From: Cyanobacteria bacterium SW_9_44_58 | GTDB taxonomy: Bacteria; Cyanobacteriota; Cyanobacteriia; Cyanobacteriales; Rubidibacteraceae | DNA: 58,770 nt | Direction of reading: 5' to 3' | Assembly: GCA_003021905.1 (NCBI GenBank) | Contig: PXPI01000029.1 | Span: 39,646-98,415 of the forward strand | Part shown: one piece after another, positions 17,773-22,243 of the stretch | Numbering within the stretch: position 1 is the first letter of the stretch | Layout of the letters: every line of letters starts with the position of its first letter | Program-made: the position numbers and the translations under genes | Notes under the pieces: model-generated | What the model saw: only the letters and a program-made list of their open reading frames with translations | Told to the model about the DNA's origin: nothing | Database searches by the model: none

Positions 17773-18656
17773 CGTCGTCTCCGACCGCGCGATCGCGTGC
17801 GCGATCGACTGCTTCCGGAACCGAATCGGCTGCCTCGAGATTTGCGCATTTGGCTTGAGTCATTGGAATTGCTATTGTTCAGGGTACTGCTGCCCACACC
17901 GGAACCGGTACTGCGACTGGAATTGCGAGTGCTGCGGTTGGTTGTATTGCTGCTGGCGGAACGATTGAGGCTGCCGGTGGTTCTCACTTGTGCCCGTTGA
18001 TTTTGTACCGAGGGGGGTGAGGACTGATAGCGGTTTTGATAGCGATCAACAGCTTGGGAATAGCTGCTGCCATACCCGCCATAGCCAGTGAGAACATTTG
18101 TCCCCGATTGATGATAAGGCGGGGGAACATAATATTGCGGCGTAAACAACATACTGCCAATCGCTTGACCGGCTAATGCTCCAGCAAACGGCGCCCAAAA
18201 GTTGGATTCCCGGCGGACAATCACGCGTTCTTCTTGCCCTGTTTCTGGATTGGTTTGGGTTTGGGCTACCCCATGAATATATTCAATCCGGAAATCTTCA
18301 TCCAAATGCAAGGAATACTCCCCATTGTCCACTAATAAGTAACTTTTCTGTCCCTGTTCAATTTCTTCTGGGGTAAGCCGCGCCATTTTGATATTCTCCC
18401 TTTCCAATACTGGCGGATTGGCATTGAGGAGAAATAACCGATATTCCCTGCTCACATCATCATAAGTTGCTTGTTGCAATTCATATTTGCCATTGGGAAG
18501 CGTGCGTTGGCTGTTGGTTTGGGTTGCTGAATCAGTATTGCGACCGATTTCCTGAGACGGTGCTTGGGAACGATTGTCGCCGCAGGCAACGCTGGTCAAA
18601 CAAAGGGAAACAATTAAAATAACGGTGACAGTTTGGCGAAAAATTAGCTGCATCAT
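17769..18656 (-). CDS. Hypothetical lipoprotein with Arg/Ser-rich C-terminus
   Basis: 295 residues. A lipoprotein signal is clear: a hydrophobic stretch [17 protein letters not shown] ends in a lipobox with Cys at about residue 25. The middle has a folded-looking region ([40 protein letters not shown]) then [19 protein letters not shown]. The last ~90 residues are low-complexity Ser/Asn/Thr/Arg, ending in dense RS/RG repeats ([12 protein letters not shown]). Part of that tail is encoded by overlapping HIP1 octamers near 17787-17805. Probably anchored in a membrane by lipid, with a basic tail that could bind polyanions; that role is inference. Confidence 0.8.
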
Positions 18657-18659
18657 TAT

Positions 18660-19236
18660 CTAAAGTGGAATTAACTCTGGGAAATTTTCTAATACTTGGT
18701 CATCAGTGAGCTCATCTCCAAACCGCGCCGGAGAGAAATGAATTTGAATGGCTCGCAACCGATTATTGTAATGGAGGTTAATTAAATCTTTCAGTTAAAT
18801 CCGTTTCTAACGTTTCCATTTCCCCAGTATAAGCCACAGTTAACATCAAAACGACATTTCGAGTGACTGGCAAAGCTAAGGGAGCATCAGGGTTGCTATT
18901 GCCGTCGCCCACAACATCACTGAGATACCGTTGTGCCGAATCGGTAAAGAGTTCATTCACATAATCCCCTGCCTCTCCTTCTTGCCAAAAAAGATCTCCT
19001 TCATTGGCTGCGGCTTGCCAGCTGCTGGGGATTCTCAAAAGGGATTCGCAAATTTCTACTAATCCTTCCCCCATAACCTGTAAATCGCCCTCGGCATCCA
19101 TCGCCTTTTGTGCCACCCGATTAAACAAGCCAAGCTGTGGCGGCGCTTCTTCCCCAGATAAATGCAACATCAACCGCAAGACAACAAAGCGGGTTCGTCC
19201 TCGAAATTTTTCTACGCGATCGCGCCATCCACCCAT
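18660..19236 (-). pseudogene. DUF1517-like conserved protein, interrupted by a frameshift
   Basis: The main frame (from ATG 19236, or GTG 19239) runs about 152 residues, MGGWRDRVEKFRGRTRF to GEMETLETDLTERFN, and stops at 18778. The next frame is open without a start from 18794 to a TAG at 18660 and encodes 44 residues: LKDLINLHYNNRLRAIQIHF, then SPARFGDELTDDQVLENFPE and LIPL. Joined after ETDL, the two parts give a roughly 195-residue protein whose end resembles the C-terminus of the DUF1517 family as I remember it. One extra base (or two missing) near 18795-18800 explains the break. It could be real gene decay, a base-call error or recoding. The function is unknown. Confidence 0.6.
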
Positions 19237-19304
19237 CACTCACGTTACTCTTTCTTGGTTCTTTATCTTATTTTAACTAGCAAGAGCGCGAGAACATAAG
19301 TCCT

Positions 19305-19328
19305 GCGCTGTAATCTCTGATTCAGCGC
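19305..19328. repeat. Left-end subterminal hairpin of the tnpB element
   Basis: GCGCTG (19305-19310) and CAGCGC (19323-19328) form a perfect 6-bp stem with a 12-base loop. The same stem, starting with the same GCGCTGTA, recurs just past the end of tnpB. Matched subterminal hairpins at both ends are the hallmark of IS200/IS605-type elements. The exact left boundary (and the flanking target motif) is not resolved; it lies between the DUF1517-like gene and about 19300. Confidence 0.6.
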
Positions 19329-19392
19329 TGGGATATCCTCACTTCCTCGTCGCTTCGCTCCTGCGTCGCTGCGTTGGAGTTGGAGTCTCGCC

Positions 19393-19427
19393 GTCAGTCG
19401 AAGGGGTTCGATACCTCTTCTACTGAC
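19393..19427 (+). promoter_or_regulatory. Hairpin in the leader of tnpB
   Basis: GTCAGT at 19393-19398 pairs with ACTGAC at 19422-19427; inside, after one mismatch, GAAG pairs with CTTC and GG with CC through a G-T step, giving about 13 paired positions with a short TTCGATA loop. It ends 38 bases before the tnpB start. IS200-type elements are known to carry leader hairpins that block read-through transcription or translation; that role here is inference. Confidence 0.5.
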
Positions 19428-19465
19428 AAATTACCAACAAATTATTTTTGTGGTAACATAGAATT

Positions 19466-20725
19466 ATGATTCTAAACTACACTTATCGCATCTACCCAAA
19501 TAATCAACAAGCTCAACTACTTGATGAGTGGCTGGAAACGTTGCGACTCTCCTACAACCATGCGTTGCGGGAACTCAAAGATTGGATTGCTTCTAGGAAG
19601 TGTCCTATCGACAGGTGTAGTTTAGAATCAGAATATATCATGAGTGCAGATTATCCCTTTCCTAGCTATCACCAACAACAAAACAATTTACCGAAAGCCA
19701 AGAAGGACTTTCCTAGACTAAAATCAGTCCCTTCTCAAGTTTTGCAAACCAATATCAGAAGGTTGCATGATGCTTGGGACTTTTTCAGGCATAGGGGATA
19801 CGGTTTTCCTCGGTTCAAAAAGATGGGACAGATGAAGTCTTTTTTATTTCCACAGTTTAGAACCAACCCAATTACAGGATGGCATATCCAACTTCCAAAA
19901 CTGGGGAAAGTAGAAGTTAATTTACATCGACCAATCCCCGATGGCTTTACGATTCGGCAAATCAGAATCGTAAAGAAGGCTAAAGGATGGTTTGCAATAA
20001 TCACCCTTTATGCTGATGTCGAGATTCCTTCCCCTTCCCCGCGCGGTCGGGCAATCGGGGTAGATGTCGGATTACTATCTTATTTGGCAACCAGTGATGG
20101 CTTTATCGAGCCGGGACGCAAATTCTTCAAGACCGAGCAAAGTCGGCTGAAAGTGCTACAACGCCGGTTAGCGAAGAAACAAAAGCGTTCCAAAAACTAC
20201 GAAAAGGCTAGACAAAAGGTAGAGAAGCAACATAATCATATCGCCTTCAAGCGGAAAGACTATCAATTCAAACTTGCCCATAAGCTCTGTGACATGGCGG
20301 ATACCATTTTCCTCGAAGACATTGATTTCCGTACCATGGCGAAAGGGTTTCTAGGCAAGCACAGTTTGGATGCTGGATTTGGACAGTTTCGTACTATCCT
20401 CAACTTCGTTGGCGGAAAACGGGATGTTTTTGTGGGAGAAGTTGACCATCGAGGGACTTCTCAAACTTGTCCGAATTGCCGAATTACAGTAAAGAAAAAA
20501 CTATCAGACAGGAAGCATTCTTGTCCCGAATGCCTGTATGAAGTAGATAGAGATGTTGCTTCCGCTCAAGAAATCTGCAATCGAGGAATAGAAACGTATC
20601 GGGGGACTCCCGAAAAGCAAGAAATTGGCTCTCAAGTCGAAGTGTCGGGGGCAATGTGCCTAGATAACTGGCGTAGGGGAGCAATGCTCATTCGCGAGGA
20701 TGAGAAGCCCGCGCTGTACCGATAG
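19466..20725 (+). CDS. tnpB: TnpB, RNA-guided endonuclease of an IS200/IS605-type element
   Basis: 419 residues, full length for the family. The N-terminal helical region starts LNYTYRIYPNNQQAQLLDEW. The RuvC catalytic acids are all present: D200 in AIGVDVGL, E284 in FLEDID, and D363 in EVDRDVASAQEI. The inserted zinc ribbon has CPNC (335-338) and CPEC (353-356). TnpB proteins are nucleases guided by an RNA made from the 3' end of the element, and help keep the element at its site. No tnpA is nearby. The gene is intact, so it is either active or recently arrived. The guide RNA should overlap the 3' end of this gene. Confidence 0.92.
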   Translation: MILNYTYRIYPNNQQAQLLDEWLETLRLSYNHALRELKDWIASRKCPIDRCSLESEYIMSADYPFPSYHQQQNNLPKAKKDFPRLKSVPSQVLQTNIRRLHDAWDFFRHRGYGFPRFKKMGQMKSFLFPQFRTNPITGWHIQLPKLGKVEVNLHRPIPDGFTIRQIRIVKKAKGWFAIITLYADVEIPSPSPRGRAIGVDVGLLSYLATSDGFIEPGRKFFKTEQSRLKVLQRRLAKKQKRSKNYEKARQKVEKQHNHIAFKRKDYQFKLAHKLCDMADTIFLEDIDFRTMAKGFLGKHSLDAGFGQFRTILNFVGGKRDVFVGEVDHRGTSQTCPNCRITVKKKLSDRKHSCPECLYEVDRDVASAQEICNRGIETYRGTPEKQEIGSQVEVSGAMCLDNWRRGAMLIREDEKPALYR

Positions 20726-20745
20726 GTCAGCGCCGAGAGAATGTC
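20560..20745 (+). ncRNA. Candidate omega (right-end) RNA of tnpB
   Basis: By family knowledge the guide RNA scaffold is transcribed from the 3' part of tnpB through the right end, with the guide taken from flanking DNA just beyond it. Here the right-end hairpin (20711-20733) overlaps the tnpB stop codon, and the sequence just after it (from about 20740) would supply the guide. The limits are an estimate; no promoter or processing site is visible. Confidence 0.35.
20711..20733. repeat. Right-end subterminal hairpin of the tnpB element
   Basis: GCGCTG (20711-20716) and CAGCGC (20728-20733) form a 6-bp stem with an 11-base loop; the tnpB stop codon (20723-20725) is in the loop. Same stem sequence as the left-end hairpin, preceded by a similar CCC-type context. 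Confidence 0.6.
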
Positions 20746-20750
20746 ACTGG

Positions 20751-20779
20751 CTCGCTAAAGCTAATACCGCTTTACCGAG
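20751..20779. repeat. Stem-loop at the 3' end of the Crp-type gene
   Basis: CTCG, a mismatch, then TAAAGC (20756-20761) pair with GCTTTA (20769-20774), a mismatch, and CGAG (20776-20779). The structure spans the crp-type stop codon and abuts the presumed right end of the tnpB element. No T-run follows on the minus strand. Single-strand transposons often enter near hairpins, so it may mark the original landing site; that is inference. Confidence 0.35.
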
Positions 20780-21335
20780 GAAGAACAATATAGTATCGTT
20801 GCTGACGGACAATTTTTCCTTCTTCTTCTAGCTCTTTTAATAACTTAGTTACCGTTACGCGAGTGGTACCAATTAATTCAGCAATATTTTGATGAGTTAA
20901 GCGCAAATCAATCAATATGCCTTGTGATACCGTGCGGCCAAACTTATTGCCTAACCAAATGAGAAGCTTATCAAGGCGATGATAAATCCGTTCACTGCGA
21001 ATAATGCGAAACAATTCTTTTGTTTGCTGACTATGAGAGATAATTCGGTCTAAAAACTGATGCCATTGTTGAGTAGGGATAGAAGTGACTTCCACGCTGG
21101 TTAAACATTCAATCTGATAAGGAGATATGCCGGACAGGGGCTGACCGACGACATCGCCAGCTCCCCAATACCCCAAAGTAATTGCTGAGCCTTCTTCATT
21201 CCAAGTCAAAGTGCGAACATTTCCCCATTCCACTGACCATAGCAAATCGGGACGAGCAGGAAGAAAATCATTGCGGCTAAACGGAAAGCGCGTCAGTTGC
21301 TGTGAAAAACTTGGGAATTCAGTAGTTAACGTCAT
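20772..21335 (-). CDS. Crp/Fnr-family transcriptional regulator
   Basis: 187 residues. The C-terminal winged helix-turn-helix is clear (LTHQNIAELIGTTRVTVTKL, then EEEGKIVRQQRYYIVLP) and resembles that of NtcA and other cyanobacterial Crp-like factors. The N-terminal cyclic-nucleotide-binding-like domain is short: it starts at LLWSVEWGNVRTLTWNEEG and keeps ITLGYWGAGDVVGQPL but lacks the first strands and any clear cAMP-binding PBC motif (RxS). It probably senses something other than cAMP or nothing at all. It is preceded by a 380-base AT-rich gap and is not obviously in an operon with the taxis genes upstream. Confidence 0.85.
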   Translation of the reverse strand: MTLTTEFPSFSQQLTRFPFSRNDFLPARPDLLWSVEWGNVRTLTWNEEGSAITLGYWGAGDVVGQPLSGISPYQIECLTSVEVTSIPTQQWHQFLDRIISHSQQTKELFRIIRSERIYHRLDKLLIWLGNKFGRTVSQGILIDLRLTHQNIAELIGTTRVTVTKLLKELEEEGKIVRQQRYYIVLPR

Positions 21336-21715
21336 ATTAATTCAATTCTCATTTGGGTAAGGGCATGCTTACTTAAGCTAATAACAATAATTCAATCTAT
21401 CTACTGAGTGTTCCAGTTTTTTAAACACTCTTTTCTGTTTTTTTTTTGGATTAATGATCAGTTTATTTTGTTGTGATATAGATTCGATAAGACTATGATT
21501 CTGTTTTTATAGAGTTACCCTGATGATACTTTATCACAACAACTTATTATTTTATTTAAGAGAAGTTTAACGAGAGGTTATGAATAATTTAAGTTCTCTG
21601 TTGATGCTAAGATATTTAATCCTTAAAAATTCATTTTAATCGTAATGTAATTTTACAAGAAGCAAATTAAATCAAAATAGCTAGAAATTTTTGATTCAAA
21701 TTATTCAAAAAGATA
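21336..21715 (-). other. AT-rich intergenic region upstream of the Crp-type gene
   Basis: 380 bases between the taxis cluster end and the Crp-type gene. An AT-rich inverted repeat AATCAAAA (21670-21677) / TTTTGATT (21689-21696) lies just after the cheW-like stop and could act as a weak terminator. No clear Crp/NtcA-type palindrome, RNA gene or open frame was found. Confidence 0.3.
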
Positions 21716-22243
21716 TTATTCATAAACTGAGAAAACGAACCGCTTATCGACATCTAACAAATAAATGGCTTCTTTTGAGGTTTTTCCTTCAAACTGAATA
21801 AAGGCAACAAAACGAGCAACCCCATATAAATTTGTTTGCCGATAAGCCTTAGGAAGCGGTTGAATTTCATCAATAGGCAACTCCATCATGTTAGGCAAAA
21901 CATCAATGGGAATGCCGCATAATTCCTCTTGGCGCGTTTGTGTCAATATCAGAAATTCTCCCTGAATATCGGGTTTCGAATCCTGTTGGCTGCTTAGTTT
22001 TTCATGCAAATTCAGCAGCATGATGCTTTGATTTTCCAACATCACCAACCCCAAACCAGCTAAATGTCGGCTTAGTTCCGGTGGACTTGTTGTTACTTGC
22101 AAAATGGCATTAATGGGAAGAGCAAACCAATAGTCGCCCACCTCAAAAACAATTACTCTTAGAGGTTCTTTTTGTGATTGCTTTTGTTGATCAGACGAAC
22201 GAAAAAGGGGATTGGAAGAAAGTGCCGATGGATGATTCATCAT
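21716..22243 (-). CDS. CheW-domain coupling protein
   Basis: 175 residues; one CheW domain (about 30-175): RVIVFEVGDYWFALPINAIL at the start, LGLVMLENQSIMLLNLHEKL, and FLILTQTRQEELCGIPIDVL. CheW links receptors to the CheA kinase. It lies 6 bases downstream of the hybrid cheA on the same strand and is the last gene of the taxis cluster. It corresponds in role to PixI/TaxW of the Synechocystis phototaxis loci, but the exact orthology is not established. Confidence 0.9.
   Translation of the reverse strand: MMNHPSALSSNPLFRSSDQQKQSQKEPLRVIVFEVGDYWFALPINAILQVTTSPPELSRHLAGLGLVMLENQSIMLLNLHEKLSSQQDSKPDIQGEFLILTQTRQEELCGIPIDVLPNMMELPIDEIQPLPKAYRQTNLYGVARFVAFIQFEGKTSKEAIYLLDVDKRFVFSVYE

What the first reader, a model, noticed from the sequence alone, without database searches (positions are those of the whole stretch)
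19305..20745. Intact stand-alone TnpB with matched end hairpins
All RuvC acids and the zinc ribbon are present, and GCGCTG-loop-CAGCGC hairpins mark both ends, but there is no tnpA. The element could still make an RNA-guided nuclease whose guide matches the sequence just beyond 20740, which is the 3' end of the Crp-type gene. It may be domesticated or waiting for TnpA in trans.
Basis: partly seen in the sequence, partly recalled or inferred. Interest (0 to 1): 0.6.

Follow-up and report, generated by a model that had tools for sequence, protein, structure and literature searches.

The report
Cyanobacterial TnpB-only jumping element
This is a 1.5-kb mobile DNA element in a cyanobacterium that carries an apparently intact RNA-guided DNA-cutting enzyme but no transposase; it is a new member of a known kind, with an unexpected predicted RNA fold over the enzyme's start codon.

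Summary
The finding is real, but its ends need correcting. Copies in other cyanobacteria place the element at 19278-20747 (1470 bp), directly after TTAAC (19273-19277) and ending ATGTCAC. The reported hairpins are subterminal and covary in relatives. TnpB (419 aa) keeps the RuvC acids and zinc cysteines, departs from relatives at 3 of 193 near-invariant positions, and shows dN/dS near 0.05. The right end is a covarying omegaRNA scaffold; its guide would be 20748-20767, intergenic, and does not reach the Crp gene. Four of five same-genus genomes have the Crp/DUF1517 junction without the element. Nineteen relatives measured end to end are only 1.4-1.54 kb, and no complete intact Y1 tnpA was found in this assembly. 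Best reading: an IS1341-type, TnpB-only IS200/IS605-group element whose TnpB cuts the emptied site so that repair restores it, moved by a TnpA in trans. Two scaffold changes make this copy's activity uncertain. Less expected: the same left end serves TnpBs only 27% identical, and the tnpB start region is complementary to codons about 50-58 in nearly all relatives examined, beyond what coding explains, though without clear covariation.

The parts
19273..19277 (+). TTAAC, target-site / TAM candidate flanking the left end
   Evidence: TTAAC at this place in 29 of 31 left ends; in 8 of 9 and 11 of 11 when anchored on other left-end sequence
19278..20747 (+). whole element, 1470 bp, TnpB-only
   Evidence: common ends in relatives and unrelated flanks; absent in 4 of 5 same-genus genomes
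19302..19332 (+). left-end hairpin with a bulged T (core GCGCTG...CAGCGC 19305-19328)
   Evidence: covariation in 15 sequences; fold
19393..19427 (+). second left-end hairpin GTCAGT...ACTGAC with GGTTCGATACC in its top; function unknown
   Evidence: seen by eye at the same place in several copies; covariation not tested
19431..19459 (+). possible tnpB promoter: TTACCA, 17 bp, TAACAT preceded by TGG
   Evidence: similar words at the same place in relatives by eye; the promoter scan did not list it
19466..20725 (+). tnpB, 419 aa
   Evidence: NF040570 268.9 bits, Pfam OrfB_IS605, TNB, HTH; residues kept; dN/dS about 0.05
19463..19488 (+). 5' arm of a predicted helix that covers the tnpB start codon
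   Evidence: 88% complementary to 19609-19634; codon tests; fold z -3.86; little covariation
19609..19634 (+). 3' arm of the same helix
   Evidence: as above
20636..20747 (+). omegaRNA scaffold, overlapping the 3' end of tnpB
   Evidence: 34 aligned right ends, 25 pairs, 11 with two-sided changes; 17-sequence count; 4 departures at 57 near-invariant positions in this copy
20711..20733 (+). right-end hairpin with a bulged T
20748..20767 (+). predicted guide, TGGCTCGCTAAAGCTAATAC, in the spacer beside the Crp-type gene
   Evidence: right-end boundary; by analogy with ISDra2, about 16 nt of flank (PMC8612924, passages)
20772..21335 (-). Crp-type regulator gene, right neighbour (not part of the element)
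18778..19239 (-). DUF1517 gene, left neighbour (not part of the element), shortened at its 3' end

Best explanation
A TnpB-only (IS1341-type) member of the IS200/IS605 group inserted between a Crp-type gene and a DUF1517 gene. A Y1 TnpA acting in trans would bind the two bulged-T hairpins, excise one strand at TTAAC on the left and GTCAC on the right, and insert it 3' of another TTAAC (inferred). TnpB would bind an omegaRNA made from the 3' end of its own mRNA plus about 16-20 nt of flank, and cut the rejoined TTAAC-guide site left after excision, so that repair from a sister copy restores the element (inferred from ISDra2). Shown here: the ends, the TTAAC flank, covarying hairpins and scaffold, a conserved and constrained TnpB, sites without the element, and the lack of tnpA in it. 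Not shown: expression, RNA, cleavage or movement.
For: Shared ends in 31 left-end and 34 right-end loci; covariation; RuvC and zinc residues kept, 3 of 193 near-invariant columns departed from; dN/dS 0.053 and 0.059; empty junction in 4 of 5 same-genus genomes; nearly identical left ends at four contig starts of one same-genus genome, 83-96% like the window, as expected of a multi-copy element; ISDra2 precedent for guide, TAM and repair model (PMC8612924, passages).
Against: No tnpA with these ends was found, so movement in trans is inference. This copy has a hairpin-breaking base (20736) and a base at 20740 that differs from 33 of 33 relatives. The intergenic spacer of relatives is too diverged to show the exact empty-site bases. 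The promoter scan lists no site before tnpB.
Confidence: 0.85

Rival explanations
1. Decaying relic: a stranded copy whose TnpB frame is still open but whose omegaRNA, and so its nuclease function, is failing.
For: Two scaffold departures not compensated (20736, 20740); left neighbour gene shortened; the nearest own-genome relative of it is broken (L055).
Against: Protein departs at only 3 of 193 near-invariant columns and dN/dS is about 0.05, though this measures the whole divergence and not only this copy's recent history.
Confidence: 0.3
2. Domesticated, RNA-guided regulator or nuclease kept for the host (TldR-like).
For: No tnpA in the element; it lies beside a regulator gene.
Against: RuvC acids kept, unlike TldRs as I recall them; mobile-type ends; guide equals its own flank and no other close genomic match was found; site empty in 4 of 5 same-genus genomes.
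Confidence: 0.03
3. A type V-U / C2c8-like CRISPR effector.
For: Matches to C2c8 (115.6 bits) and PADLOC Cas12u2/Cas12f models.
Against: C2c8 score is below its cut-off of 350; repeat search of 18200-22200 shows no array; transposon ends are present.
Confidence: 0.01

Closest known systems
IS1341 group (TnpB-only elements of the IS200/IS605 superfamily)
   Same: One tnpB gene between left and right ends, no tnpA (definition in PMC9956272, passages)
   Different: TTAAC flank; a left end shared by TnpBs 27% identical; predicted start-codon helix
ISDra2 (IS200/IS605) TnpB
   Same: TnpB domains, RNA expected from the right end, 5' flank equal to a TAM, guide equal to flank (PMC8612924, passages); solved TnpB chains match at E about 2e-25
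   Different: ISDra2 carries tnpA and uses TTGAT; here no tnpA and TTAAC
IS605 elements of Halanaerobium with lost tnpA but intact ends
   Same: Authors propose transposition by TnpA in trans (PMC7290912, passages)
   Different: There a copy with intact tnpA exists in the genome; none was found here
Acaryochloris marina pREC2 tnpA-tnpB pair (L258)
   Same: TnpB 47% identical
   Different: Has an adjacent divergent tnpA and a right end read by eye as ...GTCAA
AmaTnpB mRNA cis-regulation
   Same: tnpB mRNA may limit its own nuclease (PMC10278001, passages)
   Different: There a stretch near RuvC-II is thought to pair with the omegaRNA; here the start region is predicted to pair with codons about 50-58

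Membership tests
IS1341 group (TnpB-only IS200/IS605) | tnpB flanked by left and right ends with subterminal hairpins | tested here: met
IS1341 group (TnpB-only IS200/IS605) | no transposase gene in the element | tested here: met
   only tnpB fits in 1470 bp; ORF list, Pfam
IS1341 group (TnpB-only IS200/IS605) | fixed 5' target flank without target-site duplication | tested here: met
   TTAAC in 29 of 31 left ends, right flanks without common bases
IS1341 group (TnpB-only IS200/IS605) | mobilisation by a Y1 transposase | not testable with these tools
   needs an assay; no matching tnpA found by motif in 60 of 102 Y1 matches of 12 genomes
TnpB RNA-guided nuclease | TnpB profile, RuvC D/E/D and zinc ribbon | tested here: met
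TnpB RNA-guided nuclease | omegaRNA scaffold at the right end | tested here: met
   by covariation; this copy has two uncompensated departures
TnpB RNA-guided nuclease | RNA-guided cleavage next to the TAM | not testable with these tools
   needs an assay
TldR (nuclease-dead TnpB regulator) | lost RuvC acids (recalled) | tested here: not met
   all kept
Type V-U / C2c8 CRISPR effector | CRISPR array beside the gene | tested here: not met
   no array in 18200-22200; C2c8 model 115.6 bits, cut-off 350
IStron | group I intron in the element | tested here: not met
   no Rfam family reaches its gathering score in the window

The most novel reading that the evidence does not exclude
A set of cyanobacterial TnpB-only elements that share one pair of ends (TTAAC flank, AAGTCC-hairpin) although their TnpBs are only about 27% identical, with no tnpA of their own in any member examined, and in which TnpB translation in the main lineage is held down by an mRNA fold-back that buries the start codon, so that nuclease dosage is set by RNA structure.
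Probability: 0.3. Interest if true: 0.55.

Novelty: new member of a known kind. Interest (0 to 1): 0.36.

Why it matters
It gives a clean, testable TnpB system (ends, TAM candidate, guide, scaffold, sites with and without it) for asking how TnpB-only elements persist and move when they carry no transposase. The start-codon helix, if functional, would show how such elements limit their own nuclease, a question raised for TnpB mRNA in PMC10278001 (passages).

Tried and rejected
Outer helix enclosing the left hairpin (for example GTCGGGCT/AGCCCGAC): looks compensatory by eye, but 0 of 29 left ends beat shuffled arms at p<0.05; not claimed.

tRNA-like reading of the second left hairpin: ARAGORN finds no tRNA in the window; left unexplained.

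Matching TnpA: motif scans for TTAAC...AAGTC-type left ends in 30 Y1 loci (of 42 matches) of 8 genomes and 30 Y1 loci (of 60 matches) of 4 genomes gave no left end that I judged convincing; several coding-sequence matches were set aside by eye. A TTAAC N8-30 AAGTCCC scan of 10 genomes gave as many matches as, or fewer than, its reversed control in six of them (G000-G005) and more in the other four; the pattern alone is weak evidence and its listing was cut. Six loci from it were fetched; the script's motif matched in three: a further TnpB lineage (L247), a probably broken copy (L249) and a left end with no tnpB seen (L248).

Phage carriage: no relative in viral contigs.

Start-codon helix: RNAalifold on 29 sequences did not return it; a fixed-register count shows pairing (69.3% against 32-39% when slid) but only 2 two-sided pairs against a shuffle mean of 1.6.

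Bulged T: 26 of 33 right ends and 16 of 30 left ends; part of the misses come from my crude cutting of long left hairpins.

Not used: structure prediction, fold search, covariance-model building.

Full report
What is there. The window lies in a 2.94-Mb draft genome (G000:C29:39646-98415); the closest named relative of the element is in a Halothece MAG (L123). ORF 19466-20725 encodes a 419-aa TnpB: NF040570 guided_TnpB at 268.9 bits (cut-off 100), Pfam HTH_OrfB_IS605, OrfB_IS605 and TNB; solved TnpB chains match at E about 2e-25. Against 26 homologs, 193 columns are nearly invariant (95% or more); the window departs at three (H32, V151, R164). D200, E284, D361/D363 and the four cysteines are kept. 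dN/dS is 0.053 to L123 and 0.059 to L111, with dS 1.2 and 1.4, near saturation.

Ends. Of the 32 loci of the named-genome scan, 19 have a left end that I could recognise; 13 do not (cut by a contig end, shortened, or not found). With 12 loci from the genome search, the window included, that makes 31. TTAAC stands at the same place in 29 of 31; L058 has TCACC and L124 TTAAT. Because that script used the motif, I also anchored on other left-end sequence: 8 of 9 Halothece-type and 11 of 11 Crocosphaera-type loci have TTAAC, with unrelated DNA further out. On the right, 33 distinct ends (chosen with GTCAC in the motif, the window set by hand) are followed by DNA with at most 0.31 bits per position. 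The element is therefore 19278-20747, 1470 bp; 19 relatives measured end to end, of 20 tried, are 1407-1540 bp.

Structure of the ends. The left hairpin pairs in 97.0% of cells in 15 sequences (31-47% when slid), 5 of 9 pairs with two-sided changes. RNAalifold on 34 right ends gives 25 pairs, 11 with two-sided changes; a hand-drawn four-helix form on 17 of them pairs in 97.5% of cells (36-43% when slid), 13 of 27 pairs with two-sided changes against a shuffle mean of 5.4. No Rfam family reaches its threshold in the window. Both hairpins of this copy fold with one bulged T. Y1 TnpAs are described as binding such subterminal hairpins, with a guide tetranucleotide at the hairpin foot and a target tetranucleotide flanking the left end (PMC6006769, passages); here the feet read AAGT and GAAG.

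Site. In G001, G003, G004 and G005, four of five same-genus genomes, the matches to the Crp-type and DUF1517 genes lie 34-50 bp apart; in the window about 1.5 kb separates them. In G002 the DUF1517 gene has another neighbour. The spacer is too diverged to show the exact bases of the empty site. The guide would be 20748-20767 and stops short of the Crp stop codon, 20772-20774. TTAAC plus 13 guide bases was found only at the element's own flank (2 mismatches) and at one place with 3 mismatches; the reversed control also gave 2.

Mechanism. In ISDra2 the RNA bound by TnpB comes from the 3' end of tnpB and the right end plus about 16 nt of flank, the TAM equals the transposase target, and TnpB is proposed to cut the rejoined donor site so that repair restores the element (PMC8612924, passages). 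The counterparts are here: TTAAC, scaffold, flank and nuclease. TnpA is missing. The eight Y1 matches in this assembly come to six places: one gene with a stop (C55), two with a frameshift before the tyrosine helix (C86, C134), two partial matches (C86:41127, C134:109) and one cut by a contig end (C54). Sixty Y1 loci of 102 matches in 12 other genomes showed no convincing TTAAC-type left end by motif. A 47%-identical TnpB on Acaryochloris pREC2 sits beside a tnpA, so this branch may have lost its own. Movement in trans is inferred.

Caveat on this copy. At 57 near-invariant scaffold positions it departs four times: 20688 and 20703 compensate each other, 20736 breaks a hairpin pair, 20740 differs from 33 of 33. 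Six of 34 right ends, the window included, have four or more departures, so four is not unique.

Shared ends. L058 and L056, in the same genome, have the same left end (74-83% DNA identity over the matched pieces), yet their TnpBs are 27-28% identical to this one. L056 has a 576-aa reverse-transcriptase-like ORF (group II intron type, my reading, no search made) between left end and tnpB. A short TTAAC element without tnpB is read by eye at L069 3280-3548. In Crocosphaera a further TnpB lineage has TTAAC and AAGTCCC ends (L247).

Start-codon helix. The start region (19463-19488) is 88% complementary to 19609-19634. In 26 of 27 homologs the best partner of the first 30 coding bases, sought from +60 to +400, lies between +144 and +174. 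Against synonymous resampling, 22 of 27 exceed the null at p<0.05 (20 of 27 on repeat); 28 control pairings give 0-3 of 27. Folding the first 195 coding bases gives mean z -2.56, 19 of 27 below -2; control stretches give -1.18, -0.55 and -0.85, with 9, 3 and 3 below -2. The window stretch has z -3.86, 0 of 200 shuffles. In 27 of 27 some start-region base is predicted paired with that stretch at 0.91 or more; no null was run for this last figure. Against it: RNAalifold does not return it; the fixed-register count has no excess of two-sided pairs; the genes are related; the partner was found before it was tested. Of 13 TnpB-like ORFs from own-genome and other loci, 11 show nothing; the other two are the window's own and L158, at another place. 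Of nine plasmid relatives (of 13 found), L253 has it at the same place (p=0.027, uncorrected for six windows), L257 and L260 have signals near +131 and +133, L255 one elsewhere, five none. I read it as probable translational control, unproven.

Novelty. TnpB-only elements are a named group (PMC9956272, passages), and copies moved in trans were proposed before (PMC7290912, passages). TnpB with TTAAC as a whole word gave no paper in the held library; one search on TnpB mRNA and translation (listing) pointed to PMC10278001, whose passages I read. Subscription papers and ISfinder were not searched. I file it as a new member of a known kind.

Noticed in passing
window 19463-19634: Start-codon region of tnpB complementary to coding bases about +144 to +174, conserved beyond synonymous-codon expectation in 22 of 27 homologs.
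   Followed up: partly
window 18660-19239: DUF1517 gene is 153 aa here against 200 aa in G002 (L108); the alignment is about 26-31 bp shorter than in relatives, so its 3' end is probably frameshifted.
   Followed up: no
L055 1501-4325 (G000:C55): A second, broken copy of this TnpB, interrupted by another tnpA/tnpB element whose tnpA has a stop; its tnpB remnant holds two in-frame extra stretches and stays open for 337 aa.
   Followed up: partly
L056 1001-4871 (G000:C58): A 576-aa reverse-transcriptase-like ORF lies between a TTAAC left end and its tnpB, like a nested group II intron.
   Followed up: no
L069 3280-3548 (G000:C86): Short element with TTAAC flank and hairpins at both ends but no tnpB, MITE-like; a similar left end at L064 1071 (G000:C39).
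   Followed up: no
window 19335-19373: ATCCTCACTTCC...GCTGCG stretch repeated at many places in this and same-genus genomes, also outside the copies of this TnpB element.
   Followed up: no
window 19393-19427: Second left-end hairpin with GGTTCGATACC, resembling a tRNA T-arm, in several Halothece-type copies.
   Followed up: partly
L253 (Gloeothece citriformis plasmid pP742402): A TTAAC-type TnpB relative lies just downstream of annotated cas4/cas1 and cas2 genes.
   Followed up: no
G000:C69:11673-12198 (L110): A second Crp-type gene, 77% identical in DNA to the one beside the element.
   Followed up: no
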